This document shows positions 7,232-29,735 of a stretch of DNA of 47,460 bases, piece by piece. How positions within the stretch are numbered: position 1 is the first letter of the stretch; every line of letters begins with the position of its first letter. The stretch spans positions 1 through 47,460 of the forward strand of contig DATBBR010000028.1 in NCBI GenBank assembly GCA_036270875.1. The letters are read 5' to 3'. The position numbers and the translations under genes were made by a program. The notes beneath the pieces were generated by a model. The model was not told the origin of the DNA. It made no database searches and saw nothing but the letters and a program-made list of their open reading frames with translations. Source of the DNA: Acidimicrobiales bacterium (lineage in GTDB: Bacteria; Actinomycetota; Acidimicrobiia; Acidimicrobiales; AC-9).

Positions 7232-7699
7232 CACCCGTGACCATAACCCCACCGGGTGACGGCTCGGTGTCCAGTACATGAACGGCGGCGATGCACGGAG
7301 CCGGAGCTACGGGCCTATGCAATCACGGGGTGTGGATTCCGACGGCGGAATAGGCCCGCGACTCGATCGGCACTGCGCTCCTCGCACCCGCATCCCGGCG
7401 ACCTCTTGCGCGGCACCACCAGCTGGGCCGCGACAGCGTCGCCGAGGGCGAGAGTTCAATGATCATTTCCCGGTTGTCAACTTCCGCGACACCCGGTCTG
7501 GGTAGCTTCCCCTGGGCATGCCCTGAGCGCCAGCTGTGCTGGCCATGGGCACTCTGCCGCAGGGACCGGTTCGCCGTGTGCCAACGCGGCGGAACAGCGA
7601 TGGGTACGGGCTTGCGCAACAACAGACCAGGTGACCATCCCATGACCGGTGCAATTGGGCGACAACCTCGGCGCACGGCGCGATAGGGCCGTTCACGCA
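7232..7699. other. Intergenic region without a recognisable gene
   Basis: It separates the divergent phosphatase and MurE-like genes. Open frames exist on both strands, but they are arginine-rich, lack ribosome binding sites and match nothing I recognise. A possible -10 (TATGGT, minus, 7240-7245) serves the phosphatase. I see no repeat or strong hairpin. Confidence 0.5.
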
Positions 7700-16549: not shown

Positions 16550-16566
16550 CTAGCCCAGTACTGCAG

Positions 16567-17961
16567 CTACCCAGTCGCTGAGCCCGCTGGCCTTATGTTC
16601 TGGTTGAGGCGAAAGAGGTTTCCCGGGTCGTAGCGTTCCTTCAGCTTCTGTAGCCGCGCGTAGGTTTCCGGGCCGAACGCCGCCTTCACACGGTCTTCAC
16701 CCTCGTCGCCGATGAAGTTCAGGTAGACCCGTCCGGTGGAGAACGGCTTGATCGCCGCGTCGAACTCCTTCGTCCAGGCCACGTTGGCCTCGTCCTCAGC
16801 AGCTTCCGCCCACATCGACAGGATGTGAATGTTGAACGGGGCCCGACGTTGGCCGATAGCCATGCGATCGTCCGGGACCCGCGCGACCGCACCGCCGCCG
16901 GGCATGAGGACGATCTGCGTCAGCGGTGATGGGTTGGACAGGTGGTACCGGCATATCGTCTCGACCGCCGCGTCTGGCAGGCCGGCAAGGAACTCGGCAG
17001 TCCAATAGTTGCGCATTCCCTTCTGGTTGGCCGGGTCGATCAACCTCTGCACGGCCAGATAGGGCATCGGCTGCACCATGTCCATGGCCGGCGGGCCGAA
17101 CTCCCGCAGCGGCCGCATGGCCTCCTCGCCGTCTTCGACAGACCCGGCGTAGCAGAGGATGACACCAACCACCGGCTGGCCGCGCACGGGCTCGGGGACG
17201 AACTCCTCCGGCGGCGCAGTGATGAGAGCCACGCCACCGCCGACCTCATCGGGCGCGCCTGCCATGACGTCCCGGAAGTTGCGAAGCACCGCCGCTGCCA
17301 TCGGCGCGGGGTACATCAGCATCCCGCCCAGGACCATTGGCCCGACCGGATGGAGGCGGAACTCGAAAGAGGTGACGACGCCGAAGTTCCCGCCTCCACC
17401 GCGAGTACCCCAGAAGAGCTCCTCGTTCTCGCTCTCGGACGCAGTGACAACCTGGCCATCGGCGGTCACCATCTCCACGGACATCACGTTGTCCACCGTG
17501 AAGCCACACATGCGCTCGAGCCATCCCGACCCGCTCCCCAGCACGAGGCCCGCAATTCCTGTCGTGGACACCCTGCCTCCGGTGACAGCCAGTCCGTGCT
17601 CTTGCGTCGCCGCGTCGAGCTCACCCCACGTCAGTCCCGCATCGGCCCGGCAGGTGCGGGCTTCTGCGTCCACGTTGAGACGCTTCATCGGCCGCAAGTC
17701 GACGACGACGCCGTCGTCGCAGACTGCGTTGCCAGTCACACCGTGGCCGCCGCCATAGACGGCCAGGGGAAGGGCAGAGTCGCGGGCGAACCTCACGACT
17801 TCAGCGACGTCGTGCACGTCGGTGCAGCGGGCGATGAGCGCCGGACGCCGATCGATCATGCCGTTGAAGACGGCGCGAAGCTCGTCGTACGGTGCGTCCG
17901 CCGGGCGGACGAGCTGGCCCTTGAACCCCACCTCGAGCGAAGTGGTGCTGGCAACCGACAT
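16567..17961 (-). CDS. FAD-linked oxidase of the berberine-bridge-enzyme family
   Basis: 464 residues from the ATG at 17961 with an AAGGGGGG site upstream; 19 additional in-frame codons are unsupported. The FAD_binding_4 domain contains LPLAVYGGGHGVTGNAVCDD, whose His is the expected 8-alpha-histidyl flavin attachment point. The second (6-S-cysteinyl) anchor of bicovalent enzymes is absent: the GRVSTTGIAGLVLGSGSG segment has Thr where Cys would be. The substrate domain ends with the BBE motif YDPGNLFRLNQNIRP. Members oxidise alcohols, sugars or ring systems using oxygen. No export signal. A remnant of a different family member lies at 19180. Confidence 0.9.
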   Translation of the reverse strand: MSVASTTSLEVGFKGQLVRPADAPYDELRAVFNGMIDRRPALIARCTDVHDVAEVVRFARDSALPLAVYGGGHGVTGNAVCDDGVVVDLRPMKRLNVDAEARTCRADAGLTWGELDAATQEHGLAVTGGRVSTTGIAGLVLGSGSGWLERMCGFTVDNVMSVEMVTADGQVVTASESENEELFWGTRGGGGNFGVVTSFEFRLHPVGPMVLGGMLMYPAPMAAAVLRNFRDVMAGAPDEVGGGVALITAPPEEFVPEPVRGQPVVGVILCYAGSVEDGEEAMRPLREFGPPAMDMVQPMPYLAVQRLIDPANQKGMRNYWTAEFLAGLPDAAVETICRYHLSNPSPLTQIVLMPGGGAVARVPDDRMAIGQRRAPFNIHILSMWAEAAEDEANVAWTKEFDAAIKPFSTGRVYLNFIGDEGEDRVKAAFGPETYARLQKLKERYDPGNLFRLNQNIRPAGSATG

Positions 17962-18198
17962 CTGAAACCCCCCTTTCCCCAACCATCGCGGTCGGGAACC
18001 CGCCGGGATTGTAGCCAAGACCCATCCCCCAGGTCCGGTGAGACGAACCAGACGCCACCCGGCCCCGCCGGTAAGCGCCAGAGTGGCTCAAGGCGGTTGA
18101 AACCGCCCAGTCGTGCCTCGAGCTGACGGCGCGCCGGCATCCACGGCAGCGCACGTGGCATCGCGGCGACAGCACTTGGCAGGGGCGGACGACGGGGA

Positions 18199-19179
18199 AT
18201 GGGCGATCGGCCGCCCTCGTTGGCCGAGTACGTGGCCGCGACCGTGATAGCGACGGCATTCGGGGGACCCGAGGTCCTGGCCGTGGTGGACACGCCAGTT
18301 CGAGATCCCGGCCCCGGTGAGGTCCTCCTCCAGGTACGCGCCGCGGGAACGAATCCGGTCGACTACAAGATGTACAGCGGCGCGTTCGGAGGAGATCCCG
18401 CGCAACTGCCGATCCGCCTCGGTCTCGAGGCCGCTGGCGTGATCACCGCCGTGGGCGACGGCGCCGCAGGAGCAGAGGGCCCTGTTCACCCCGGAGACGA
18501 GGTGATCGCCTTCCGCATCACGGGCGGCTATGCCAGCGAGGTCGTCGTGCCGGGGTCTGCAGTGGTCCGTAAACCGTCGACGTTCTCCTTCGAGCAGGCC
18601 GGCGGGCTCCTGCTTGTCGGGGCGACGGCGGTCCATGCGCTTCAGGTGACGGGTGTCGCCGCGGGAGACACGGTCCTGATCCATGGAGCGTCAGGGGGCG
18701 TGGGACTCATGACCGTGCAGCTGGCCATCAACCTTGGGGCCCAGGTCATCGCCACTGCAAGCGACGGACACCACGCCTACCTGCGACAGCTCGGGGCCGA
18801 GCCGGTTACCTACGGCGACGGGCTCGTCGAGAGGATCCGGGACCTGGCGCCTGACGGCGTCCAGGCCGCGATAGATGCCGTCGGCACCACCGAGGCGATC
18901 GACGTCTCGACCGCCCTGGTCCCAGCGCGCGACCGGATCGCCACTCTCGTCGCCGTTCAGCGCGGGTTCGAGCTCGGCCTCAGGGTTCTCGGAGGTGCGC
19001 CAGGTGCCGACCCCGGCACCGAGATCCGTGCTGCCGCCCGCGCCAAGCTGGTCGAGCAGGCCGAGGGCGGCCAGCTTGAAGTTCTGGTGAGCGCCGCGTA
19101 CCCCCTCTCAGACGTGGCCGCTGCCCATCGCTCTCTGGCCGCAGGCCACACCCAGGGCAAGATCGTGCTCGTTCCCTAG
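18199..19179 (+). CDS. NADPH:quinone oxidoreductase-like medium-chain dehydrogenase (zinc-free)
   Basis: 326 residues. The GroES-like domain (VLLQVRAAGTNPVDYKMYSG, LGLEAAGVITAVGDG, HPGDEVIAF) precedes a Rossmann domain with HGASGGVGLMTVQLA and closes with AHRSLAAGHTQGKIVLVP. It lacks the zinc-binding Cys cluster, placing it with QOR/zeta-crystallin reductases of quinones or activated alkenes. A GTG at 18232 is an alternative start. Divergent from the flavin oxidase, with a small stem-loop (GGCGGT TGAA ACCGCC, 18092-18107) in the spacer. Its stop codon is followed at once by a fragment of another oxidase gene. Confidence 0.9.
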   Translation: MGDRPPSLAEYVAATVIATAFGGPEVLAVVDTPVRDPGPGEVLLQVRAAGTNPVDYKMYSGAFGGDPAQLPIRLGLEAAGVITAVGDGAAGAEGPVHPGDEVIAFRITGGYASEVVVPGSAVVRKPSTFSFEQAGGLLLVGATAVHALQVTGVAAGDTVLIHGASGGVGLMTVQLAINLGAQVIATASDGHHAYLRQLGAEPVTYGDGLVERIRDLAPDGVQAAIDAVGTTEAIDVSTALVPARDRIATLVAVQRGFELGLRVLGGAPGADPGTEIRAAARAKLVEQAEGGQLEVLVSAAYPLSDVAAAHRSLAAGHTQGKIVLVP

Positions 19180-19258: not shown

Positions 19259-20647
19259 TCAACCGAGCGCCTCGGCGTCCGCACCTGCGCCGTGGTCGTC
19301 GGGTCCCCAATGGCCGAGCGATCCGGGCACCACCGCCTCCGGGCCGGTGGAGCGGCGAGTCCGATCACCGTTGCGCGCCAGTACCGCTCGGACCGCTCCG
19401 GTCAGCGGCGCCGTCAACTGGGACGGAAGGCAGATCCCATCGCGCAGACACTCCTCGATCCGTCGCTCGGGCAGAAAGACGGGCGAGGCGATGCGGGCCC
19501 GCTCGATGGTGCGAGCACCATCGCCAGTGAGCTCGTGGGGGCCGTGCGGCTCCCTCACCGCGCCCGACTCCACGAGCGCCGCCAGGGCGGCCGCCAGCTC
19601 AGCGCGCAAGCGGCGTGAGCGCGGCGCCCGGTTGACCACGGGGACCACGCACTGGCCGGGGACGCCGACACCGAGCAGGTCAGTGACGACTCGCGCCAGT
19701 GAGTGGATGCCCTTCATGCCGGGCCCGCCCACCACCAGGACCACGTCTGCCTCTTGCATCGCGGTTCGGCTCATGACGTTGCGCTCCTCGACGTCCAGGG
19801 AGCCCCCGTCGCGCTCACCCTCGACATCGGCTTCCACATCGGCGACGACCGTCGAGAAGGTATGGCGCAAGCTCGTGAACGCCGCTTCGAATGCCCGCGG
19901 ACGTAACGCCGCCCAGGCCGACGAACGCCGCAGCCCGAGGAGCAGGTGGTAGCCGCGCTCCTCGACGACGAAGGTGAGGGCCATGACGGCGTCACGATCC
20001 GGTTGTCCGTTGCGGTGCGCCTCCACCAGCTCCTGGACGCTGGGGACGATGTCGCCCGCATCGTGCAGCATCGACTGCTCGGCACGGCGGGCGAGGTCGG
20101 CCAGGATGACCGGACCGCGCTCGCTCGCGCCCCCCGGCTTGTCCTCGGCGAGGCCCTGGCAGAGCGCGATCGCGACCGTCGAGGCGCCGGTCCCCCCCGG
20201 ACCGCATATGGCGACGACCGCGCCGCCAGGATCGCCGCTCGCCACGCCGTCGAGCGTTCCCGGCACCTGATTCCCTACGGCAATGGGCGTGGCGTGGGCG
20301 GCGAGCGCCCTGAGCAGCTCCTCCCGGGCGAAGCCGTCGAAGAGGACGGCAGCAGCTCCCAGCGCCAGCCAGTCGCTCCGATGGCGCCGTTCCTCGACCA
20401 CCAGCGTCGGACACCTCGCCCGGCTCATCTCGTCGACGAGATCCCGGTCGAGGGCGGCGACCCTCGAGTCCACGATCGCCGCCGAGAAGGCTCGGCCCGA
20501 GCCCAACCTCGCCCGCAGCTCCTCCGCCGACAGGCACTTGACCAGCTCGACCGGTATCGACGAGGCGTGCGCCCACTGGGCGACGGTGCGGAACCAGGCC
20601 GCCCGAGGGTGCGCGAGCCCGAGGATGACGTACCGTTCGCCGGCCAT
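19259..20647 (-). CDS. CpaE/TadZ-like pilus-assembly ATPase (MinD family)
   Basis: 462 residues. Residues 1-125 form a response-receiver-like domain (YVILGLAHPRAAWFRTVAQ; AAIVDSRVAALDRDLVDEM); 145-410 a MinD/ParA-type domain with Walker A CGPGGTGASTVAIAL, in which both signature lysines are missing, as is usual in CpaE/TadZ. Later segments TVVADVEADVEG and ADVVLVVGGPGMKGIHSLAR follow the SIMIBI layout. CpaE/TadZ localises Flp/Tad secretion machinery at the cell pole or membrane. The ATG overlaps a TGA (TGATG), a relic of a lost upstream gene. The promoter is a copy of that of the CpaB-like gene. No other tad gene is in the window. Confidence 0.75.
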   Translation of the reverse strand: MAGERYVILGLAHPRAAWFRTVAQWAHASSIPVELVKCLSAEELRARLGSGRAFSAAIVDSRVAALDRDLVDEMSRARCPTLVVEERRHRSDWLALGAAAVLFDGFAREELLRALAAHATPIAVGNQVPGTLDGVASGDPGGAVVAICGPGGTGASTVAIALCQGLAEDKPGGASERGPVILADLARRAEQSMLHDAGDIVPSVQELVEAHRNGQPDRDAVMALTFVVEERGYHLLLGLRRSSAWAALRPRAFEAAFTSLRHTFSTVVADVEADVEGERDGGSLDVEERNVMSRTAMQEADVVLVVGGPGMKGIHSLARVVTDLLGVGVPGQCVVPVVNRAPRSRRLRAELAAALAALVESGAVREPHGPHELTGDGARTIERARIASPVFLPERRIEECLRDGICLPSQLTAPLTGAVRAVLARNGDRTRRSTGPEAVVPGSLGHWGPDDHGAGADAEALG

Positions 20648-20676
20648 CAGCCGCCCCCGATCGCCCGCACGGCGGG

Positions 20677-20723
20677 AGCATACGGCGCACTGTCGCTATC
20701 TTTCAACTTACCCTGTGTGGTTC
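20677..20723 (-). promoter_or_regulatory. Promoter of the CpaE-like gene (copy 1 of a duplicated promoter)
   Basis: Minus strand: GAACCACA (20716-20723), -35 TTGAAA (20701-20706), 18-bp spacer, -10 TATGCT (20677-20682), then CCGCC. The same elements with identical spacings precede the CpaB-like gene at 24689-24735. Transcription would start about 20 bases before the ATG. Confidence 0.7.
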
Positions 20724-20834
20724 GGCACACCCCGTGCACCCATGTCGGGTCTGCCGAGGTCACTGTTGACGAGCAGCTCGGACGGTGCTGCCATTCCGTC
20801 CGGGTGACACCCCCAAGGAATGGAGGTCGGCGCA

Positions 20835-21608
20835 GTGACAAGGCTTACGGAGATCGGGGGCAAGCGACTCCCTTTCCTGCGGTGGTCGGCCCTGCGGATG
20901 GCCTTCGGCGCCAGACACCTGACTACTCATTGGCAGGTAGGCGACGGACGTGAGGAAGCGTTGGCCCGCTACGTCGTCGGTCACGCTCGGAAGGGCGACA
21001 TCGACGACACGATCCGGGTGATCGACGACTTCTGCTACCGGCGCAGCGTGATGATGAACGTGGGGGACGAGAAGGGCGAGATTCTCGATCGCGCTGTGGC
21101 ACGCGTCCACCCTCGACGGCTATTGGAGCTTGGGACGTACTGCGGTTACAGCGCTCTGCGCATCGCCCGCGTCATGCCCGAGGAAGCACGGCTCTACTCG
21201 GTCGAGCCCGTTGAGGCGAACGCAGACATCGCACGCCGCATTTGGGACCACGCCGACGTTGGCAGCCGCTTGACGGTCGTCGTCGGGCGCCTGGCGGACG
21301 GCGGTAAGACACTGGACCGGCTCGAATCGGAGCATGGCTTTGGCGGTGGGACGCTGGACTTCGTCTTCGTCGACCACGACAAGGCTGCCTATCTTCCCGA
21401 CCTCGAGCGGATCCTGAGCCGGGGGTGGCTGCATCCCGGTTCGGTCGTCGTGGCTGACAACATCAAGGTCCCCGGCGCGCCGGCCTACCGTTCCTACATG
21501 AGGGCCCAGGAGGGCAAGACCTGGCGCACCATCGAGCATGATGCCCATGTGGAGTACCAATCTCTCATCAAGGACCTGGTGCTTGAATCGCAGTACTCGG
21601 GAGGGTGA
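20835..21608 (+). CDS. Catechol O-methyltransferase-like SAM-dependent methyltransferase
   Basis: 257 residues from a GTG at 20835 with AATGGAGG 8 bases upstream (the ATG at 20820 lies inside that site). The class I methyltransferase core matches COMT closely: LELGTYCGYSALRIARVMPE (motif I), LYSVEPVEANADIARRIWDH (acidic SAM contact), FVFVDHDKAAYLPDLE (catalytic metal Asp) and SVVVADNIKVPGAPAYRSYM (Asp-Asn metal ligands). It should methylate a catechol hydroxyl using Mg2+ and SAM. An N-terminal extension of about 70 residues is similar to that of membrane COMT-type bacterial proteins but has no clear membrane helix. A TTGACG/TGCCAT promoter is possible at 20766-20794. It converges on the metallo-hydrolase operon. 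Confidence 0.85.
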   Translation: MTRLTEIGGKRLPFLRWSALRMAFGARHLTTHWQVGDGREEALARYVVGHARKGDIDDTIRVIDDFCYRRSVMMNVGDEKGEILDRAVARVHPRRLLELGTYCGYSALRIARVMPEEARLYSVEPVEANADIARRIWDHADVGSRLTVVVGRLADGGKTLDRLESEHGFGGGTLDFVFVDHDKAAYLPDLERILSRGWLHPGSVVVADNIKVPGAPAYRSYMRAQEGKTWRTIEHDAHVEYQSLIKDLVLESQYSGG

Positions 21609-21642
21609 GAACCTGGCCGCCCACCGCGCCGGAGGCCGGAGC

Positions 21643-22374
21643 TCACCCAGCCTCGGCGAACGCCTTGCGGAGGCGCAACTCGTAGTCGTCGGCGAGGGCC
21701 CGCAGGGCGGTAGCGCCGTCGCCCCGGTACGAGGCGCCGTGCATGAGGCCAAGGGTTGCTGGCGCGAGCTCGGCCAGGCCGCGAATCGTCGGGGCCGTTG
21801 CGGGAGTGAGGCAGGTCGCGCCGAACAGGTCCTCCGTCGCCGCCGCCGCGCCGACCACATCGTCCTCGGTGAGGGCGGGGACGGCGCCGACATGGGTGAA
21901 GAGGTCTCCGCAGAGCAGTGTGCTGGTGGTCTCCTCGTAGAGGAGCCCGGCGTCCCATCCATGCGGGACGTGGGGCGTGTCCACCCAGCGGACCCGCCGG
22001 CCGCCGAGGTCGATGACGTCGCCGTCGGCGAGCACCCGCGGGGCTCGGGCCGCCTGATCGGTCGTCGACAGCATGCCGCTGAGCGCGCCCACTGCCGGCT
22101 CGGCGGACGGAGCGGCATCGAGCCACAGGTTCAAGGCGCCGCTCTCGTCAGCCTCCCAGTGCCCCCAGCTGATCCAGCGCAAGCGGTCGAGGGGGATCAC
22201 CGACTGGGCCGCCTCGGCGACGAGCGGGAACATCTGGCGGGGGCCGGTGTGGAAGAGCAGCGCTTCCTCGCCCGCGACGAGGAATTGGTTGAACGTAAAG
22301 CCGCCAGGGACGGCGTCGGTCAATGTCGAGAGCCGGTAGATACCGTCGTTGATCTCGTCGACTTTGGTTTCCAT
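21643..22374 (-). CDS. Metallo-beta-lactamase-fold protein related to ODP/flavodiiron oxygen-binding domains
   Basis: 243 residues from the ATG at 22374, which overlaps the stop of the preceding gene (TGATG). The fold begins IYRLSTLTDAVPGGFTFNQF and contains a variant metal motif SWGHWEADESG: His-x-Glu-x-Asp is kept as in flavodiiron proteins, but the following His is Glu. Further ligands: WVDTPHVPHGWDAG (His), LLCGDLFTH (Asp, His) and LMHGASYRGDG (His). This pattern fits a diiron ODP domain used for oxygen sensing or reduction more than a zinc hydrolase. Last gene of the TetR operon. Confidence 0.82.
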   Translation of the reverse strand: METKVDEINDGIYRLSTLTDAVPGGFTFNQFLVAGEEALLFHTGPRQMFPLVAEAAQSVIPLDRLRWISWGHWEADESGALNLWLDAAPSAEPAVGALSGMLSTTDQAARAPRVLADGDVIDLGGRRVRWVDTPHVPHGWDAGLLYEETTSTLLCGDLFTHVGAVPALTEDDVVGAAAATEDLFGATCLTPATAPTIRGLAELAPATLGLMHGASYRGDGATALRALADDYELRLRKAFAEAG

Positions 22375-23132
22375 CAGAGGGGCAACTCCTTTTTCAACAG
22401 TCCCGAGCCGGTTCCCCGGCCCGAGAGGATCCAGATCCACTCGAGGCCGTCGATGCGAAGCACCTCGCCATCGATCCCGGCGGCGTAGCTCCCGCCCGCC
22501 GGGCCTTCGAGCTCGAGGCGAAAACCATGACCGTGCACCCGCTGCCAGTCGACGACCATGTCGGCGAGGAGCCGCCCGTCGTGGTCGGCGGTGAGCACGG
22601 GCACAAGCCCGACAGCGCGGCACAGGTCGATGCGATGCATCCAGATGTCACGGGTGAGGACGACGTCGATGAGGTAGGAGCCCATCGGGCGCTTGCCGAG
22701 CGGGGGCCCGAAGTCGAGGGGCAGGGGCCGGAGGAAAGGTGGGAACCGGCGCCGGCTCTTCAGTGCCCGCGGCCATGCCGCGTCCCAACGAGCAACGAGC
22801 TCGTCCGGCCCGGCAGCCGCCCGCTCCCGGACCTGGAGCTCGGTGACACCGTGGATCCAGTGGCCGTAGCCCTTGTCCTTCGCGATTCGCCGCCCGGCGC
22901 GCATCTGGTGGGCCTGCTCCCGCAGTGACGAGTTGGCCTCGACCGCGCCCACATTGTGGGCAACGAGGCCACGCACGTCCCACTGGTCGCACACCGTGGG
23001 CCGCTCCCAGTCGTCGGGGCCCAGCTGATGGACGACATCGCCGAAGCGCCGGTACTCCGTTGCCGCCAGTTCGATCCCTTCGCGGTGCGTGATCGAAGGG
23101 ATGTCTTGCACCCGGACCGCCGTGTCGTTCAC
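22374..23132 (-). CDS. Maleylpyruvate isomerase-family (mycothiol-dependent/DinB-like) protein
   Basis: 252 residues from a GTG at 23132 with AAGGAGGG upstream; the start overlaps the regulator stop (GTGA). The N-terminal four-helix domain carries VHQLGPDDWERPTVCDQWDV, then RGLVAHNVGAVEANS, the usual W..PT.C..W.V.....H signature, in which His and neighbouring acidic residues bind metal in the mycothiol-dependent isomerase/DinB fold. A helical centre (SYLIDVVLTRDIWMHRIDLC) also carries the His-x-x-Asp element. The C-terminal domain resembles the MDMPI C-domain. Known relatives isomerise maleylpyruvate in aromatic degradation or transfer thiols; the substrate here is unknown. Confidence 0.85.
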   Translation of the reverse strand: MNDTAVRVQDIPSITHREGIELAATEYRRFGDVVHQLGPDDWERPTVCDQWDVRGLVAHNVGAVEANSSLREQAHQMRAGRRIAKDKGYGHWIHGVTELQVRERAAAGPDELVARWDAAWPRALKSRRRFPPFLRPLPLDFGPPLGKRPMGSYLIDVVLTRDIWMHRIDLCRAVGLVPVLTADHDGRLLADMVVDWQRVHGHGFRLELEGPAGGSYAAGIDGEVLRIDGLEWIWILSGRGTGSGLLKKELPL

Positions 23133-23740
23133 TTTGTCGCCCTCCTTCTCCTGGTGCCCCTCCGGACTTGCGTCAGGTACATGTCGACCACCTCGTCGAC
23201 GAGCCGAGTCCATCGGTCCCCGCCCGGCTCGTTGGCGATCTGCTGCCAGCCCAGACCCGAGATCGCTGCGGTCCACAGATCGAGATGGACGGGCTCGGTG
23301 AGGCCCGCCCGAGCGAGCGCCGCCCGGCCCCCTTCCAGGATCCGCACGGCGAGGGCGTAGGACTCCGGCGAGGGCTCGAAGCCGGGGATCGTCCGCATGA
23401 ACAGGAGCTGGGCCCGCGCCGGGTCCTCCGTGGTGAAGCTCACGAAGGTGCGAGCAGTCCACCGTAGGATCTCGTCGGGGTCGTCGGACTCTGGCGCGAG
23501 CTCCAGCTGCTTCAGCAGATCGAGGTTGCCCTGGGCGAACATTGCGTCGTAGATGGCGTGCTTGGAGTCGAAGTACGAGTACAGCGAGGGCGCCTGCATG
23601 CCGACCCTGCGGGCAAGGTCGCGCAGCGACAGGGCGCCGAGGCCCTCGGCCCGGACGATTTCCCAGGCTGCGTCCAGGATCTCGGCCTTGGTCGCCTCCC
23701 GGCGCTCCATCCGCCTATCACGCATCGGTTCTACGACCAT
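23129..23740 (-). CDS. TetR-family regulator of the isomerase/metallo-hydrolase operon
   Basis: 203 residues. The DNA-binding domain is complete (KAEILDAAWEIVRAEGLGAL, then LRDLARRVGMQAPSLYSYFD), including SLYSYFDSK at the end of the recognition helix. The C-terminal domain contains the TetR_C ligand pocket helices (FVSFTTEDPARAQLLFMRTI, then DLWTAAISGLGWQQIANEPG). Its stop overlaps the next start by four bases, so all three genes are translationally linked. A good promoter (TTGACG, 17 bp, TAGGTT) lies immediately upstream and contains two inverted repeats, so autorepression is likely. Alternative starts at M6 or M11 are possible. Confidence 0.9.
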   Translation of the reverse strand: MVVEPMRDRRMERREATKAEILDAAWEIVRAEGLGALSLRDLARRVGMQAPSLYSYFDSKHAIYDAMFAQGNLDLLKQLELAPESDDPDEILRWTARTFVSFTTEDPARAQLLFMRTIPGFEPSPESYALAVRILEGGRAALARAGLTEPVHLDLWTAAISGLGWQQIANEPGGDRWTRLVDEVVDMYLTQVRRGTRRRRATK

Positions 23741-23741
23741 C

Positions 23742-23778
23742 GTTCGCAGAACCTAACAGTGTTCGACCACACCGTCAA
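23742..23778 (-). promoter_or_regulatory. Promoter and candidate operator of the TetR operon
   Basis: -35 TTGACG (23773-23778), 17-bp spacer, -10 TAGGTT (23750-23755) on the minus strand. Inside the spacer, 23759-23770 is the near-palindrome GTGTTCGACCAC (one mismatched pair); overlapping the -10, 23742-23752 is GTTC-GCA-GAAC, perfect. Either could bind the operon's own TetR protein. Confidence 0.6.
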
Positions 23779-23792
23779 GTCCTTGCCGGTGA

Positions 23793-23904
23793 TTGACCAG
23801 CTCCACCGGTATCGAGCACACCCGCACGACTAGTGGGCGACGGTGCGGAACCACGCCGCCCGGGGATGGGCCAGCCCCAGATCGACCTACCGGTCGCCGG
23901 GCGT
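23793..23904 (-). pseudogene. Dead 5' copy of the CpaE-like gene behind the CpaB-like gene
   Basis: Right after the CpaB-like stop, the minus strand aligns for about 110 bases with the first 37 codons of the gene at 20647: LGLAHPRAAWFRTVA is conserved and SIPVELV can still be traced. The ATG is ACG, the Tyr codon in GERYV is TAG, and a Trp codon in QWAHA is TAG, with a small insertion after it. The TGATG overlap of stop and start is preserved as TGACG. So a second cpaB-cpaE junction once existed here, and most of this cpaE copy was removed; similarity stops at 23793. Confidence 0.8.
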
Positions 23905-24656
23905 CAGGGGCTGGCCGCGGTCGACGGGCTGCGATACGTCCCGCTGTCGGTGGCGCTGCCAGCCCCGGTCGAGCGGACGAGCATCACCTGGCCGGCATCC
24001 ACGGCGTGGGCGACTGCGAGGCTGTCGGCCGACCGGGCCAACCCGAGCGTCATGGTCTCGCTGGCGCCTCCGGCCGGATCGAGCGTCGAGGAGCCGTCGC
24101 TGCGGGCGACGACAGTGGCGTTACGGACCACGGCAACCGTGGTGGCGTCGGCGCCGCTCCCGTAGGTCGCAAGGACGTCGACCAGCTCGCCCACCTGGAG
24201 CGTCCCGTCGACGGCCCGAGCTGCGGTGATCGGGAACGAGAGCTGACGGTCCCCGGTGGCGTCGGCCCCGGCTACGACCGAGCTGGCCTGGATCAGCTCG
24301 CCCGCGTGCACCGGTCCCACCACCAGGGCCCCCACGAGGCGACCGGGATCTCGAAAGGCAAGCTGGCTGCCGATCGCCGGAGACAGCACCATCGGCGCCG
24401 TGGCCAGGTCGGCTGACGTGATGCGCTGGCCGACCGTGAGGGTGTGCCGGGCCACGACGTAGGTCACCCCCTGCTGGCTCGTGGCGCCGGTGTAGGCGGC
24501 GAAGATCCCCACCGCGGCGGCGGTGACCAGGAAGCCACCGACGACGGCCCGTCCTCCGGGCAGCGGCCGGCGGCGGCGAAGCGGACGGGCTCCGTCGGCG
24601 GTGGCCGTGGCCCCGTCGCCGCCCGGGCCCGCCGTCCTGCGCTCGATCGTCACCAC
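23904..24656 (-). CDS. CpaB/RcpC-like SAF-domain pilus assembly protein
   Basis: 250 residues from a GTG at 24656 (GGGAGGG 9 bases upstream; a second GTG follows directly). A basic N-terminus (RPLRRRRPLPGG) precedes one membrane helix (AVVGGFLVTAAAVGIFAAYT) and then a SAF domain (VTYVVARHTLTVGQRITSAD, LVGALVVGPVHAGELIQASS) and a C-terminal domain of the RcpC/CpaB type (DGTLQVGELVDVLATYGSG). CpaB proteins sit in the periplasm or cell wall side of Flp/Tad pilus machines and bind wall material through SAF. The natural partner CpaE has been reduced to a fragment behind it; a live CpaE homologue lies 3.2 kb away with the same promoter. Confidence 0.8.
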   Translation of the reverse strand: MVTIERRTAGPGGDGATATADGARPLRRRRPLPGGRAVVGGFLVTAAAVGIFAAYTGATSQQGVTYVVARHTLTVGQRITSADLATAPMVLSPAIGSQLAFRDPGRLVGALVVGPVHAGELIQASSVVAGADATGDRQLSFPITAARAVDGTLQVGELVDVLATYGSGADATTVAVVRNATVVARSDGSSTLDPAGGASETMTLGLARSADSLAVAHAVDAGQVMLVRSTGAGSATDSGTYRSPSTAASP

Positions 24657-24688
24657 GACGGTGGACCCTCCCAGCTGGATGTGGCGGC

Positions 24689-24735
24689 AGCATACGGCTG
24701 GGTCTCGATGTGTTTCAACTCTCTACATGTGGTTC
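24689..24735 (-). promoter_or_regulatory. Promoter of the CpaB-like gene (copy 2 of a duplicated promoter)
   Basis: Minus strand: GAACCACA (24728-24735), -35 TTGAAA (24713-24718), 18-bp spacer, -10 TATGCT (24689-24694), then GCCGCC. The distance from GAACCACA to TTGAAA equals that in copy 1 (20677-20723). The motif lies between this gene and the divergent LysM gene and could be an operator for both. Confidence 0.7.
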
Positions 24736-24773
24736 AGTGCAGCCGACGATTCTATGCTGTATGGTGTTGTTTG

Positions 24774-25574
24774 ATGCCTCGAAGCGATGATCGACCGGCG
24801 TGCCGCTCCGTACTCCTGGTGGGCTGGGTGATGCTCCTCGTCCTTGCCGTGGGCGTGCTCCATGCCGCGGGGCGGGGTCCGCTCGCCGCCCCGCCCGTCA
24901 GCCAGCCCGGGGCCCTGGCCCCCTGGTTGGAGCAACGATCGGCGGCCGCGCTGGCCTTCGGTGCGCTGCGCCTGGCGGCCATGGGGTTGGCGGGGTACCT
25001 GCTGGCGACCACGCTCGCCGGCCTCCTGGCCCGGACCGTCGGCCGGGCTCGCTGGTCGGCCGCAGTGGACGCGATCAGCCCGCTCGTGGTCCGCCGGCTC
25101 GTCCAGGGCGCGGCCGGCCTGACCATGGCGGCCACCGTCACCACGACCCAGGCGGCCGCCTGGGCCGCACCCGGTGTGCCAGCGGGACCCGCGTCGTCGA
25201 CACCGATCATGCGTCGGCTGCCCCCGGACCTTCCGAGCACGACAGCGACGGCGCCGCACGCCGGCACGGCGTTCTCGGCGCCGGCGCCCCCCGTCCAGTC
25301 GCCGCCCGCCCAGTCGTTCTCGGCGCCGGCGCCGCCCGCCCAGTTGCCGCCCGGGACGTGGGTCATCCGAGCCGGCGACAACCTGTGGTCGGTGGCGGAG
25401 GCGACGCTCGTCCGAGCCTGGGGTCGGGTGCCCTCCGACGCCGAGGTGGACGACTGCTGGACGAGGCTCATCGCCGCCAACCGTGACCGCCTCGCACATG
25501 GCGACGATCCGGACCTCGTCTTTCCCGGCCAGGTCTTCGACCTGCCGCCACCGCCGGCTGCGGACCAGCGCTGA
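24774..25574 (+). CDS. Membrane protein with proline-rich linker and C-terminal LysM domain
   Basis: 266 residues from the ATG at 24774. Two -10-like hexamers (TATGCT 24753-24758, TATGGT 24760-24765) end 8-15 bases before it and no ribosome binding site exists, suggesting a nearly leaderless message. The N-terminal part has two or three hydrophobic helices (SVLLVGWVMLLVLAVGVL; LRLAAMGLAGYLLATTLAGL; LVQGAAGLTMAATVTTTQAA). A proline-rich linker with two SAPAPP units (AFSAPAPPVQ; SFSAPAPPAQ) leads to a LysM domain: WVIRAGDNLWSVAEATLV, then LIAANRDRL and PGQVFDLPPP. It should bind peptidoglycan outside the membrane and is divergent from the CpaB-like gene, consistent with a shared role at the cell wall. 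Confidence 0.82.
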   Translation: MPRSDDRPACRSVLLVGWVMLLVLAVGVLHAAGRGPLAAPPVSQPGALAPWLEQRSAAALAFGALRLAAMGLAGYLLATTLAGLLARTVGRARWSAAVDAISPLVVRRLVQGAAGLTMAATVTTTQAAAWAAPGVPAGPASSTPIMRRLPPDLPSTTATAPHAGTAFSAPAPPVQSPPAQSFSAPAPPAQLPPGTWVIRAGDNLWSVAEATLVRAWGRVPSDAEVDDCWTRLIAANRDRLAHGDDPDLVFPGQVFDLPPPPAADQR

Positions 25575-25584
25575 GCGCGCTCAG
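25571..25584. repeat. 14-bp perfect palindrome spanning both convergent stop codons
   Basis: CTGAGCGCGCTCAG contains the TGA stop of the LysM gene (25572-25574) and, on the other strand, the TGA stop of rsmE (25581-25583). Only six bases separate the genes. No T-run follows; it may give weak bidirectional pausing. Confidence 0.6.
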
Positions 25585-26273
25585 GAGACCAGCCGGGCCC
25601 GGAGGGCGCACAGCAGCACACCCGCGGCCACCGCCGCCGTCTCGGCCCGGAGCACGTTGGGCCCCAGCTCCACCAGCGGGAGGCCGGAGGCCAGCTCGGT
25701 GCGATCCCAGCCGCCTTCCGGGCCCACCAGCACGAAGGGTCGATCCAGCGAAGGAGCGGCGCCGCCCGCCTCCGCCAGCGCGGCGCCGGCGACTGCCACT
25801 TCGGCGAAGGGCAGGACGTCGGTGACCTCGGGCAGGCGGTTGCGGCGTGACTGCATCGCCGCCTCCCGGGCCACGCGGCGCAGGCGATCGACGTTGCGGT
25901 CGGCGCGGGCGGCGTCCCAGCGGACGACGGAGCGCGACGACGAGAGGGGGACGATCCGATCGACTCCCAGCTCGGTCAGTTTCTGCACCACCCATTCGGG
26001 CCGCGAACCTTTGGTGATCACGAAACCGACGCCGACAGCCGGCAGCGGTTGTTCTTCGTGGATGACCGGTCCCTCGGGGTCGAGGGCGACGGTGGAGCGG
26101 CCCCCGCCGCGTCGCCCCGGCACGAACCGGCAGCGCCGCCATCGGCCGGCCCCGTCCGACGCCGTCACCTCCTCGCCCGGGCGCAGGCGGAGGGCGTGCG
26201 AGAGGTGGTGCCGATCGGGCTCGTCGACCTCCGGCGCCTCGAGGTCGGCCACGAAGACGTGGGCGACCGCCAC
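25581..26273 (-). CDS. rsmE: 16S rRNA (uracil-1498-N3)-methyltransferase RsmE
   Basis: 230 residues from a GTG at 26273, five bases after the dnaJ stop. The N-terminal PUA-like domain (APEVDEPDRHHLSHALRLRP) is followed by the SPOUT methyltransferase with its trefoil knot: VGFVITKGSRPEWVVQKLTE, QSRRNRLPEV, FVLVGPEGGWDRTEL and LGPNVLRAETAAVAAGVLL. RsmE methylates U1498 in the decoding region of 16S rRNA using SAM. Position behind dnaJ is a known actinobacterial and firmicute arrangement, so it is probably transcribed from the hrcA promoter. Confidence 0.93.
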   Translation of the reverse strand: MAVAHVFVADLEAPEVDEPDRHHLSHALRLRPGEEVTASDGAGRWRRCRFVPGRRGGGRSTVALDPEGPVIHEEQPLPAVGVGFVITKGSRPEWVVQKLTELGVDRIVPLSSSRSVVRWDAARADRNVDRLRRVAREAAMQSRRNRLPEVTDVLPFAEVAVAGAALAEAGGAAPSLDRPFVLVGPEGGWDRTELASGLPLVELGPNVLRAETAAVAAGVLLCALRARLVS

Positions 26274-26278
26274 CGCTG

Positions 26279-27409
26279 CTACTTGAACGCCGAGCGGATC
26301 CTCGAGAACATGCCGGACTCGACGGGAGCCACTTCCTCGCCCCGCTCGGCGGCGAGCTGTCGCAGCAGCTCCTCCTGCGCGTCGGTCATGGCGGTCGGCG
26401 TGTCGACCACCGCCTCGACCACGATGTCGCCCCGACCTCTGCTGTTGACGTGGGGCACGCCCCGCCCGCGCAGGCGGAACACCCGACCCGTCTGGGTCCC
26501 CGCCGGGACGACCAGATCCTCCGAGCCGTCGAGGGTCTCGAACTCGATGTGGGCCCCGAGCGCGGCCTGGCTCATCGCCAGGTGGAGCTCGTGGGTGAGG
26601 TCGTATCCATCCCGGCGGAAGCGCTGATGGCCAGCGACCGACAGATGCACGTACAGGTCGCCGGCCGGTCCCCCGCGGGGGCCGGCCGAGCCCCGGCCGG
26701 TGAGCCGCAGCGTCGAGCCGTGGTCCACGCCCGCCGGCACGTCGACGGTATAGGTGCGCTGCTCGGTCCGCCTGCCCTCGCCCCGGCAGTCTCGGCACGG
26801 GTCGGCGATGATCCGTCCCAGGCCGCGGCAGCGCGGGCAGGGAGCTGACGTCACCATCTGGCCCAGGATCGACTGCCGCACCCGACGCACCTCGCCCGCG
26901 CCGCGACATTCCGAGCACACCGTCGGCGAGGTGCCGGGGCTGGCCCCGCTCCCCTCACAGGTCGAGCACGTCACGGGGGCCTTGAGGCCGACCTCCCGTT
27001 GGGCGCCGAACACGGCCTCCTCGAAGGTCAGCTCGAGGACGACCTCGAGGTCGGCGCCCTGCACCGGCCCCGCTCGACCACGGCCGGCTCCTCCCCCGCC
27101 GAATGGGCTTTGCTGGCCGAAGAAGGCGTCGAAGATGTCGCCGAGGCCCCCGCCGAAGAATGCGTTGGGATCGTTCGGTCCTGCCCCGCGCGCCCCGTCG
27201 GGGCCGAACATGTCGTAGCGGCGGCGGCGCTCGGGATCACGCAGGGTCTCGTAGGCGACCGTCACCTCCTTGAAGCGCTCCTCGGAGTGCGGGTCACCGC
27301 CGTTGGCGTCTGGGTGCAGCTCGCGGGCCAGCCGACGGTAGGCCCGCCTGATGTCGTCATCAGTGGCGTTGTGGTCGATCTCGAGAAGTTCGTAAAAGTC
27401 GGTTGGCAA
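26279..27409 (-). CDS. dnaJ: Chaperone protein DnaJ
   Basis: 376 residues. J domain at 1-70 with DFYELLEIDHNATDDDIRRA and the HPD motif (RELHPDANG), then a Gly/Phe-rich region (NAFFGGGLGDIFDAFFGQQS), four CxxCxGxG-type zinc-finger repeats (CSTCEGSG, CSECRGAG, CPRCRGLG, CRDCRGEG) and the C-terminal substrate-binding domains (VDVPAGVDHGSTLRLTGRGS; GRGVPHVNSRGRGDI). It stimulates DnaK ATPase and delivers unfolded protein. dnaK and grpE are not in the window, so this is probably the second, hrcA-linked dnaJ typical of actinomycetes. Six bases separate it from hrcA. Confidence 0.96.
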   Translation of the reverse strand: MPTDFYELLEIDHNATDDDIRRAYRRLARELHPDANGGDPHSEERFKEVTVAYETLRDPERRRRYDMFGPDGARGAGPNDPNAFFGGGLGDIFDAFFGQQSPFGGGGAGRGRAGPVQGADLEVVLELTFEEAVFGAQREVGLKAPVTCSTCEGSGASPGTSPTVCSECRGAGEVRRVRQSILGQMVTSAPCPRCRGLGRIIADPCRDCRGEGRRTEQRTYTVDVPAGVDHGSTLRLTGRGSAGPRGGPAGDLYVHLSVAGHQRFRRDGYDLTHELHLAMSQAALGAHIEFETLDGSEDLVVPAGTQTGRVFRLRGRGVPHVNSRGRGDIVVEAVVDTPTAMTDAQEELLRQLAAERGEEVAPVESGMFSRIRSAFK

Positions 27410-27415
27410 GAGGAG

Positions 27416-28417
27416 CTATCCCTCGTTCAGTCGGCGCCCGAGCTGTCGACTGACAACGGCGACGGCAGCCAGGGCCTGGGGGTAGTTCATGCGGGTCGGA
27501 CCGAGCACGCCAATCGTGCCGGCGTCGTCCCCCGCACCACCATACGGTGCCACGACGACGGCGCATTCAGCCAGGGGAACCACGCCGTGCTCGATGCCGA
27601 TCGCCACCGACAAGCCGCGGTCGAGGACGTCGCGCAGCATGCTGACCACGACGTACTGCTGCTCCAGGATGCCCAGCACGCCGCGCACGGTGTCCACCGC
27701 CTCGAATGCCGTGGCCATTCGCGACGCGCCGCCCACGAACATGTGCTCGGGCTCTTCGCTGTGCTCGGGAGAGGTGAGGGCGGACACGCTCGAATTGACG
27801 ACCGCATCCGTTGCCTGGTCGCCGGTGGCCACCGGCCGCTCCACCTCGCCCAGGGTCCTCCCCACCAGGTGGGCGCCGAGGTGGGCGGTCGCCGATGCCA
27901 GTCGCTCGGGACCGGTGGACTCGTCCACCTCGAGCGAGCGCTTCTCGACGGCGCCGTTGGAAAGCACGACGACGAGCAGCGCAGCGCGCTGTGCCAGTCC
28001 GACGAGCTGGACCGAACGGATCACGGCGGCCTCGGGGCCGGGGCTCACCACGACGGCGGCATAGTCCGTCAGGTGCGAAAGCAGCTTGGACGTGTCATGG
28101 AGCATCTGCTCCAGCTCGCCGTGGGCTCGGGCGAAGAACTTTCGCACCTGCTGCTGGCGGGCGGGGTCGAGGGGTTCGGGTCCGCTCAGCTGGTCGACGA
28201 AGTACCGGTAGCCCTTGTCGGTCGGGATGCGCCCGGCGCTCGTGTGGGGCTGGGTGAGATAGCCCTCGTGCTCCAGGGCGACCATCTCGTTGCGGATCGT
28301 GGCCGCGGAGACACCGACCTCCGGCACCCGCGTGACATGGGCCGACCCGACGGGCTGGGCCGTCTCGATGTACTCCGAGACCACTGCTCGGAGTATGGAA
28401 GCCTTGCGTTCGTCCAA
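27416..28417 (-). CDS. hrcA: Heat-inducible transcription repressor HrcA
   Basis: 333 residues from a TTG start at 28417; no ATG or GTG exists in frame nearby and homologues begin at the same place (LDERKASILRAVVSEYIETA). The winged helix has VGVSAATIRNEMVALEHEGY, then LTQPHTSAGRIPTDKGYRYF, the family signature. The C-terminal GAF-like part includes SMLRDVLDRGLSVAIGIEHG and IGVLGPTRMNYPQALAAVAV. HrcA dimers bind CIRCE and need GroEL to stay active. A CIRCE element lies 40 bases upstream of its own start, so hrcA-dnaJ-rsmE are autoregulated by heat shock. Confidence 0.96.
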   Translation of the reverse strand: MDERKASILRAVVSEYIETAQPVGSAHVTRVPEVGVSAATIRNEMVALEHEGYLTQPHTSAGRIPTDKGYRYFVDQLSGPEPLDPARQQQVRKFFARAHGELEQMLHDTSKLLSHLTDYAAVVVSPGPEAAVIRSVQLVGLAQRAALLVVVLSNGAVEKRSLEVDESTGPERLASATAHLGAHLVGRTLGEVERPVATGDQATDAVVNSSVSALTSPEHSEEPEHMFVGGASRMATAFEAVDTVRGVLGILEQQYVVVSMLRDVLDRGLSVAIGIEHGVVPLAECAVVVAPYGGAGDDAGTIGVLGPTRMNYPQALAAVAVVSRQLGRRLNEG

Positions 28418-28456
28418 CGGTTCACCGACCTGGCCGTCCCCGAGATGGCGGGACGA

Positions 28457-28483
28457 TTAGCACTTAAGTGTACCGAGTGCCAG
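28457..28483. promoter_or_regulatory. CIRCE operator (HrcA binding site)
   Basis: TTAGCACTT (28457-28465), 9-base spacer, GAGTGCCAG (28475-28483). Consensus is TTAGCACTC-N9-GAGTGCTAA; the left arm has one mismatch and the right arm keeps GAGTGC. It lies upstream of hrcA and covers the last codons and stop of the glycosyltransferase gene. Confidence 0.88.
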
Positions 28484-29600
28484 GCGGGTATCGGCGCTCC
28501 GCGGCTGCCGGGGTGCCCTCCACGGCCTGGGCCGAGGGCTGCAGACCGCCGTCGGCGTCGCCCCCGTCGGGGCCCGGTGGTCCCCGCAACGGCAGGTCTC
28601 CCATGGCCCCCACCGGGGGACTGGTCGGCTCGGGCGCCGGGATGGTCCCGCCGTAGAAGCGCAGGACCCGCAGCCGGTAGAAGATGGCCAGTGTGTCGAG
28701 CAGCAGCAACAGGACGGCGCGGGGCGAGATGGTGCTGCTGAAGCGCTCGTTGATGCGCACCGGCGCCTCGATGAAGCGCCGGTAGCCCAATCGACGAGCC
28801 ACGACGAACAGCTCTAGATCGAAGGCGAAGCGCTTCTCCACCATGTGAGGAAGCACCGCCGCCAGCACGTCCCGTCGCACCAGCTTGATGCCGGTCTGGG
28901 TGTCCCGGATGCGCAGGTGGAACAGGAGCCTGATCAGCTGCTGGTAGCCCCAGGAGTAGGCGCGCCGAAGGGGCGGGTAGTGCACGGACGACTGCGGGTG
29001 GCGCTTGCTGCCCAACAGGATGTCGGGCTCGTGGCGCCGCATCAGCGACACGAACGGGCGTAGCAGCTCGGCCGGGAGATCACCGTCGGCGTCGATGAAG
29101 CCCAGGTAGCGACCGCGGCCGAGCGCCATCCCGGCGCGAAGGGCCTGCCCCTTGCCCCAGTTGCGGGCGAGGACGACGCGCCGGACGACGTCGCCGGCCA
29201 CGCCCGCCAGCGAATCGGCGCTCCCGTCGGTGGAGCCGTCCGACACGGTGATGATCTCGAAGCTCAACCCCGACTCCACCAGCACCGCGACCAGGCTCTC
29301 CACGGTCACCCGCAGCCGCGAGCCCGGGTTGAAGTAGGGCACCACCATGGTGAGGTCGAGCTCGGGCTGGGCCAGCTCCCAGAGCTCGCCCCCGCGTCCG
29401 GTGGTCTGGCGGTGCCTCGACCACCGGAGGGCCGTCAGCCCGATCTCGGCCAGCCCGGCGCCGACCAGCCCGGCCCGCACCAGACTGACCACCGGTACGT
29501 GCGTCTGCCCCGACGAACCGTTGCTCGCCCTGCTGGAGGTGCCGATGCGATGACCCAATTCGGCGCTTTCTGATGGCGACACAGCTGATCGGGCGGGCAC
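28464..29600 (-). CDS. Family 2 glycosyltransferase (dolichyl/polyprenyl-phosphate sugar synthase-like)
   Basis: 378 residues. After a polar N-terminus of about 80 residues with a short hydrophobic stretch (VPVVSLVRAGLVGAGLAEIG), the GT-A fold begins at LDLTMVVPYFNPGSRLRVTV. Metal-binding and catalytic segments are present: FEIITVSDGSTDGSADSLAG, LGFIDADGDLPAELLRPF (DAD) and RDTQTGIKLVRRDVLAAVLP, close to dolichyl-phosphate mannose/glucose synthases. The end is proline/glycine-rich and disordered. It probably charges a polyprenyl phosphate with a hexose for wall glycan or protein glycosylation. The stop codon lies inside the CIRCE element, so hrcA regulation overlaps this coding sequence. Confidence 0.88.
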   Translation of the reverse strand: MPARSAVSPSESAELGHRIGTSSRASNGSSGQTHVPVVSLVRAGLVGAGLAEIGLTALRWSRHRQTTGRGGELWELAQPELDLTMVVPYFNPGSRLRVTVESLVAVLVESGLSFEIITVSDGSTDGSADSLAGVAGDVVRRVVLARNWGKGQALRAGMALGRGRYLGFIDADGDLPAELLRPFVSLMRRHEPDILLGSKRHPQSSVHYPPLRRAYSWGYQQLIRLLFHLRIRDTQTGIKLVRRDVLAAVLPHMVEKRFAFDLELFVVARRLGYRRFIEAPVRINERFSSTISPRAVLLLLLDTLAIFYRLRVLRFYGGTIPAPEPTSPPVGAMGDLPLRGPPGPDGGDADGGLQPSAQAVEGTPAAAERRYPPGTRYT

Positions 29601-29683
29601 GATCAGCTTCGGCGGTTGGCGCCAGCCATGGTACTGACGGCTTGCCGCTTCGCCCCCGCGGGGCTCGGCCGGTCTGTCGTCGG

Positions 29684-29735
29684 GCCGGTCTCCCGGGCCG
29701 ACCTCCTCGGCCGGCCTCCCGGGCCGGCGCCTCTT
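29684..29735. repeat. Four tandem 13-mers, also part of a dispersed GC-rich repeat
   Basis: Units begin at 29684, 29697, 29710 and 29723: GGCCGGTCTCCCG, GGCCGACCTCCTC, GGCCGGCCTCCCG, GGCCGGCGCCTCT. Another GGCCGG is at 29668. Read on the minus strand, 29706-29732 gives GGCGCCGGCCCGGGAGGCCG followed by GCCGAGG, which recurs almost unchanged at 36695-36722 and in shorter form before rpsT. It lies between lepA and the glycosyltransferase gene and touches the lepA stop. Confidence 0.7.

What the first reader, a model, noticed from the sequence alone, without database searches (positions are those of the whole stretch)
20645..24741. Two copies of a cpaB-cpaE transcription unit with reciprocal loss of one gene each
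The CpaE-like gene at 20647 and the CpaB-like gene at 24656 have the same promoter: GAACCACA, 9 bases, TTGAAA, 18 bases, TATGCT, CCGCC. In copy 2 the CpaB-like gene is alive and a 110-base fragment of CpaE lies behind it with ACG for ATG and two stops. In copy 1 the promoter is joined almost directly to CpaE, whose ATG overlaps a TGA exactly as at the CpaB stop of copy 2, so a cpaB copy was probably excised. Each unit thus lost the gene the other kept. Such complementary decay splits an operon into two distant halves and puts foreign genes between them. The order of events is inference.
Basis: partly seen in the sequence, partly recalled or inferred. Interest (0 to 1): 0.75.

Follow-up and report, generated by a model that had tools for sequence, protein, structure and literature searches.

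The report
Split pilus operon with copied promoter
In this soil actinobacterium two neighbouring pilus genes that normally share one switch were pulled apart by a DNA duplication that gave each gene its own copy of the switch; this shows one way a bacterial operon can come apart without its genes losing common control.

Summary
cpaB and cpaE, 3.3 kb apart, carry homologous promoters (GAACCACA-9-TTGAAA-18-TATGCT), the only two places in the genome with this pattern within 3 mismatches. A decayed 112-base stub of the cpaE start lies directly behind cpaB. Relatives give the direction: 28 of 30 genomes of the order have cpaB and cpaE adjacent. The same-genus outgroup G001 has promoter-cpaB-cpaE intact. 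The sister species G002 is split too, with different genes between, and its cpaE promoter matches its cpaB promoter even in the spacers (21/27), so the copy arose by descent before these two species parted. That two complete units existed is not shown: the stub ends sharply at codon 37 and its private changes look neutral, so a partial duplication of about 0.94 kb fits equally well. Beyond the finding, cpaF (G001) and tadB (G002), also detached from the ancestral cpaB-cpaE-cpaF-tadB-tadC operon, are preceded by more diverged versions of the same promoter; the whole operon may have broken up with each piece keeping the original switch. The window's genome lacks detectable CpaF and TadB/C, so pilus function there is doubtful.

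The parts
24689..24735 (-). promoter P of cpaB: GAACCACA, 9 b, TTGAAA, 18 b, TATGCT
   Evidence: conserved upstream of cpaB in G001 and G002
23904..24656 (-). cpaB (SAF / RcpC-CpaB-like Flp pilus assembly protein), intact
   Evidence: SAF 6.4e-07, RcpC 1.4e-04; TIGR03177 CpaB 1.8e-11, below its cut-off; dN/dS 0.21 to G002
23793..23904 (-). decayed stub of the cpaE start (to codon 37): no ATG, two TAG, indels
23129..23740 (-). inserted gene: TetR-family regulator
22374..23132 (-). inserted gene: mycothiol-dependent maleylpyruvate isomerase family protein; no close copy in G002 (best E 7e-4), 46% homologue elsewhere in G001
21643..22374 (-). inserted gene: metallo-beta-lactamase-fold (ODP-like) protein
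20820..21608 (+). inserted gene: O-methyltransferase
20677..20723 (-). promoter P' of cpaE, copy of P
20647..20663 (-). possible vestige of the 3' end of an excised cpaB copy (..GGGCGGCTGA), TGA overlapping the cpaE ATG
   Evidence: modest: 8/14 in G000, 10/14 in G002
19259..20647 (-). cpaE (TadZ/CpaE: receiver-like domain plus MinD/ParA-like domain with degenerate P-loop), intact
   Evidence: dN/dS 0.19 to G002
24774..25574 (+). divergent gene with a weak LysM match, the neighbour of cpaB in G000 and G001 (marks the original site)
   Evidence: (LysM E 0.084)

Best explanation
A segment running from the promoter of the Tad-pilus operon head through cpaB and into at least the first 37 codons of cpaE was duplicated next to itself in the common ancestor of G000 (this genome) and G002. 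The downstream unit lost its cpaB copy by an internal deletion that left the promoter close to cpaE. The upstream unit kept cpaB and a dead stub of cpaE. Unrelated genes then occupied the gap, different ones in the two species. Result: two single-gene units, each under its own copy of the ancestral promoter, so both genes could stay under the same control although no longer in one operon. Shown: promoter homology, the stub, the ancestral order, the sharing of the split by two species, purifying selection on both genes. Inferred: tandem duplication as the mechanism, the order of deletions, and that both promoters are active.
For: Stub alignment score 109 against shuffle maximum 34. The promoter pattern occurs only twice in the genome. 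G001 has P-cpaB-cpaE intact. 28 of 30 genomes with both genes have them adjacent, only G000 and G002 do not. G002, a separate assembly, is split with a P copy before cpaE whose spacers match P (42/53 in all). The flanks of cpaB and of cpaE match between G000 and G002. Third-position divergence of the stub from G000 cpaE (12/35) is like that between G000 and G002 cpaE (13/35), which places the duplication near or before the species split. Residual cpaB end before cpaE in G002. dN/dS 0.19-0.21 for both genes.
Against: No detectable homology between the sequence upstream of P and upstream of P', so the 5' breakpoint is either right at the promoter or eroded. The cpaB vestige is only 10-14 bases. 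The 135-base leader between P' and cpaE in G002 has no significant match to cpaB. Parsimony sites in the stub conflict mildly (5 shared with G000 cpaE, 3 with G002, 1 with G001). G002 has no stub behind cpaB. The genomes are draft assemblies, and cpaE of G002 lies across two contig ends.
Confidence: 0.75

Rival explanations
1. Strict version of the first reader: two complete promoter-cpaB-cpaE units existed, and each later lost one gene by decay (reciprocal loss).
For: Same data as the best explanation. Duplication of a complete operon would also account for the other detached pieces (cpaF, tadB) with P-like promoters.
Against: The stub ends sharply at codon 37 and no other cpaE remnant exists in 20740-23792. 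The stub's private substitutions are evenly spread over codon positions (3:5:6), unlike the functional genes (1:2:13; one-sided Fisher p 0.035), so there is no sign of a long functional phase.
Confidence: 0.3
2. One-sided (Campbell-type) integration of foreign DNA that carried a homologous P-cpaB-cpaE(start) segment: it leaves promoter-cpaB-cpaE stub / foreign genes / promoter-cpaB-cpaE in one step, after which the second cpaB was deleted.
For: It explains the sharp stub end, the abrupt homology start at P' and the foreign genes between.
Against: The foreign genes in G000 and G002 are unrelated although the two share the promoter copy, so the original cargo would have been replaced. None of the inserted genes that were searched is a plasmid, integrase or phage gene.
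Confidence: 0.2
3. Convergence or co-regulation: cpaE acquired its own promoter in place, and it resembles P because the same activator and sigma factor must bind both; the stub is a separate event.
For: In G000 the hexamers and the GAACCACA box are identical while the spacers are mostly different. The box varies in step within species (G001 GAAGCACA twice, G000 GAACCACA twice, G002 ACCGCA twice).
Against: In G002 the spacers of the two promoters agree at 21 of 27 positions, which convergence does not predict. The stub independently shows a duplication at this very junction.
Confidence: 0.1
4. Assembly artefact: the split is a chimaera of strains or a scaffolding error.
For: Draft assemblies. 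The two G002 contigs carrying the parts overlap by exactly 141 bases at the cpaE start, which marks a branch in the assembly graph.
Against: G000 has the whole arrangement on one 47-kb contig with both flanks matching G002, and two separately assembled species share the promoter copy.
Confidence: 0.04

Closest known systems
Tad/Flp (type IVc) pilus operon, cpaB-cpaE-cpaF-tadB-tadC
   Same: Both genes are its standard members; in other genomes (L078, L080, L082 complete; L079 up to tadB) the contiguous order is read directly.
   Different: In this genus the operon is in pieces: cpaB | cpaE in G000 and G002, with cpaF (G001) and tadB-tadC (G001, G002) elsewhere. In G000 no CpaF, TadB or TadC was found.
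Operon breakup as described for his/trp and other operons (insertion or rearrangement, 'split operons')
   Same: Genes of one pathway end up in separate transcription units.
   Different: A review states that when an operon is split only the first unit retains the regulatory motifs (PMC10138114, section 3.3); here the detached gene has a copy of the original promoter.
Duplication-degeneration-complementation and tandem duplication followed by differential loss (general evolutionary models, own knowledge)
   Same: Duplicated unit, complementary loss, both remaining parts kept.
   Different: It acts on genes of one operon rather than on functions of one gene; full-length duplicates are not proven.
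Putative mobile promoters (short promoter-bearing repeats in bacterial genomes; own knowledge)
   Same: A promoter-sized sequence present in several copies in a genome.
   Different: In G000 it has only two copies, both at Tad genes, one next to gene remnants; no spread to unrelated genes within the mismatch limits.

Membership tests
Tad/Flp pilus protein CpaB (RcpC) | SAF domain followed by RcpC/CpaB domain | tested here: met
   Pfam SAF 6.4e-07, over cut-off; RcpC 1.4e-04 and TIGR03177 1.8e-11 are below their curated cut-offs.
Tad/Flp pilus protein CpaE/TadZ | atypical receiver domain plus MinD/ParA-like domain | tested here: met
   AlphaFold model (mean pLDDT 61, moderate); best PDB match is 3fkq, a two-domain protein of Eubacterium rectale (E 1.4e-07; TadZ from own knowledge), then MinD/FlhG and receiver domains; CbiA/ParA in 4 of 13 homologues.
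complete Tad/Flp pilus system in the window's genome | motor ATPase CpaF and platform proteins TadB/TadC present | tested here: not met
   PF00437 none in G000, PF00482 none, TadB of G002 none; 97% complete draft, so loss or a gap.
operon fission by duplication and complementary loss | ancestral single operon | tested here: met
operon fission by duplication and complementary loss | both units carry homologous copies of the promoter | tested here: met
operon fission by duplication and complementary loss | remnant of the lost gene in each unit | tested here: inconclusive
   cpaE stub in unit 2 clear; cpaB vestige in unit 1 only 10-14 bases.
operon fission by duplication and complementary loss | both units transcribed under common control | not testable with these tools
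   needs expression data
mobile promoter repeat | many near-identical copies before unrelated genes | tested here: not met
   two copies in G000; in three genomes the core pattern with at most 1 mismatch occurs only before cpaB, cpaE and tadB.

The most novel reading that the evidence does not exclude
The whole Tad operon of this genus dissolved piece by piece, and every detached piece (cpaB, cpaE, cpaF, tadB-tadC) carries a descendant of the one original promoter: an operon turned into a regulon by copying its promoter rather than by evolving new ones, with the upstream box co-evolving with its factor in each species.
Probability: 0.45. Interest if true: 0.7.

Novelty: new variant of a known kind. 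Interest (0 to 1): 0.5.

Why it matters
How an operon can come apart without the detached genes losing their regulation is an open question; a recent review says that only the first piece keeps the regulatory motifs (PMC10138114). Here three related species show before (G001), after (G002) and after with a relic still visible (G000), which makes the duplication route directly testable. The wider set (cpaF, tadB) suggests the route may have been used repeatedly in the same operon.

Tried and rejected
Search for the GAACCACA-TTGAAA-TATGCT pattern elsewhere in the genome, to see a regulon in G000: none. P upstream of cpaB in other families: absent, so P is genus-specific and gives no older reference. 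cpaB remnants in the 135-base G002 leader: not above shuffles. Homology upstream of P and P', or between the end of the stub and the region before P', to locate the duplication junction: none. Remnants of cpaF behind cpaE or tadB behind cpaF: none. Similarity of the tadB 5' leader to the cpaB leader looked striking by eye and beat 300 shuffles, but 7 of 2858 genomic windows score as high, so it is not used. A second CpaB-like hit in G000 contig 7 falls among ORFs of unrelated enzymes and a transporter and was set aside. The stub's phylogeny is unresolved (5:3:1 sites). NCBIfam and PDB sequence searches do not name CpaE; only fold comparison does. One paper wanted on operon turnover is not held.
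Full report
WHAT WAS CHECKED. On the minus strand the window has cpaB (24656-23904) and, 3.3 kb further on, cpaE (20647-19259). Both are preceded by GAACCACA, 9 bases, TTGAAA, 18 bases, TATGCT. In the whole genome the pattern with up to three mismatches occurs only at these two sites, and a sigma-70 scan of 20500-24900 finds only these two sites (0.1 expected). Behind cpaB, 23904-23793 aligns with the start of cpaE at score 109 (best of 500 shuffles 34). It lacks the ATG and has two TAG codons and frame-shifting indels. One detail is open: against G001 the missing ATG can be a 6-base deletion rather than ATG>ACG.

THE ANCESTRAL STATE. Among the relatives searched, 30 genomes (this one included) gave both genes; in 28 they are adjacent on one strand, and only this genome (G000) and G002 are split. 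In named relatives the order cpaB-cpaE-cpaF-tadB-tadC is contiguous (L078, L080, L082; L079 to tadB). G000 and G002 are sisters to the exclusion of G001 (flanking DNA 86% against 80% identical; dS 0.39-0.50 against 0.63-0.77).

THE SISTER SPECIES. In G002, cpaB sits in the same flank as in G000 (23910-31356 and on, collinear). Behind it come 2.0 kb with other genes (a short-chain dehydrogenase and an unidentified ORF), then a promoter and cpaE. The cpaE gene runs over two contig ends that overlap by 141 identical bases. The G002 cpaE promoter, GGACCGCATGGAGAGAGTTGAAAGACAACGGCAGCCCGCCGTATGCTCCC, agrees with the cpaB promoter of the same genome also in the spacers (21 of 27 by count; local score 66). 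The G000 cpaE promoter is closer to it (score 45) than to the G000 cpaB promoter (33). So the two promoters are copies by descent, and the copy predates the G000/G002 split. The inserted genes are unrelated between the two species and came, or were exchanged, later.

THE STUB. Over 109 compared sites the stub differs from G000 cpaE at 12/35 third positions, much like G000 against G002 (13/35), so it is about as old as the species split or older. Its private changes fall 3:5:6 on codon positions, as for a dead sequence, against 1:2:13 between the functional genes. Shared sites do not resolve its place (5 with G000, 3 with G002, 1 with G001). Its homology to cpaE stops abruptly in codon 37 and no further remnant was found. 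This favours a duplication that ended inside cpaE, or a very early loss. Duplication of one 943-base stretch (24735 to 23793) followed by deletion of the second cpaB explains everything with one gene loss. A weak vestige of the cpaB end before the cpaE ATG (10/14 bases in G002, 8/14 in G000) fits that deletion.

HOW IT LIKELY WORKS. Both genes are under purifying selection (dN/dS about 0.2) and each has a sigma-70-like promoter with the same upstream box at the same distance. The plain reading is that the detached gene stayed under the old control because it took the promoter with it. Activity of either promoter is not shown.

BEYOND THE FINDING. The rest of the operon is also detached in this genus. 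In G001 cpaF stands alone beside a gene that reads like an alanyl-tRNA editing protein, and tadB-tadC start a separate unit in G001 and G002. About 125 kb of genus sequence, cut into 1586 windows, was scanned with four of the promoters. With the G001 cpaB promoter the best window outside cpaB/cpaE is the one directly upstream of cpaF in G001 (GAAGCACAT..GGTTGAAC-17-TACGCT). With either G002 promoter the best two distinct windows are that one and the one directly upstream of tadB in G002 (AGTTGAAACAGCAAGAGAGTCGCCCGTATGAT), on the right strand. The G000 cpaB promoter does not rank them first. In all three genomes the core pattern with at most one mismatch occurs only before cpaB, cpaE and tadB, and the tadB site is the only sigma-70-like site in its 1.5 kb. 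Individual scores are low (29-34, against 27-32 for the next windows), so the evidence lies in the position. The cpaF site does not pass the sigma-70 scan. The box varies in step within species: GAAGCACA in both G001 sites, GAACCACA in both G000 sites, ACCGCA in both G002 sites. This hints at a factor that co-evolves with it, but it rests on few letters.

FUNCTION. cpaB is a SAF/RcpC-type protein. CpaE has the two-domain TadZ fold: receiver-like plus MinD-like (best PDB match 3fkq; model confidence moderate). Its P-loop lacks the usual lysine in all 13 homologues (GxGGxGxST). G000 has no recognisable CpaF, TadB or TadC, and the tadB neighbourhood of G002 has no clear counterpart in it, so whether G000 still builds a pilus is uncertain. 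The TadE search is uninformative (the model rang in only one of 14 controls).

VERDICT. A real and well-polarised case of an operon split by duplication with the promoter copied; whether complete units were duplicated is open. Known in principle, unusual in being caught with its intermediate states and in keeping the same promoter on both pieces, perhaps on all four.

Noticed in passing
L134 (G001 contig 41) about 7444-7500; L110 (G002 contig 42) 3181-3215 minus: Diverged versions of the same promoter directly upstream of cpaF (G001) and tadB (G002), two other detached pieces of the Tad operon.
   Followed up: partly
window 24728-24735 and 20716-20723; L037, L033, L134: The box upstream of the -35 varies in step within each species (GAAGCACA in G001 cpaB and cpaF, GAACCACA in G000 cpaB and cpaE, ACCGCA in G002 cpaB and cpaE), as if following a co-evolving factor.
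   Followed up: partly
window genome G000 (whole): No CpaF, TadB or TadC detectable although cpaB and cpaE are intact and under purifying selection; either the motor genes are missing from the assembly or lost, or the two proteins serve something else.
   Followed up: partly
window 19259-20647, residues 149-157 of CpaE: The P-loop of this CpaE family reads GPGGTGAST, with another residue where the lysine of Walker A is expected, in all 13 homologues aligned.
   Followed up: no
L033 end / L034 end (G002 contigs 3 and 123): The two contigs overlap by exactly 141 identical bases at the cpaE start, a sign of a branch in the assembly graph; part of the population may carry another arrangement there.
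   Followed up: no
window 16566-19175: The flank downstream of cpaE is also variable: G002 has about 4.9 kb between the parts that match 18019 and 19175, where G000 has 1.2 kb (a quinone-oxidoreductase-like ORF).
   Followed up: no
window 23755-23790: Between the TetR start and the cpaE stub, TTCGACCACACCGTCAAGTCCTTG on the plus strand faintly resembles the promoter box; possibly chance.
   Followed up: no
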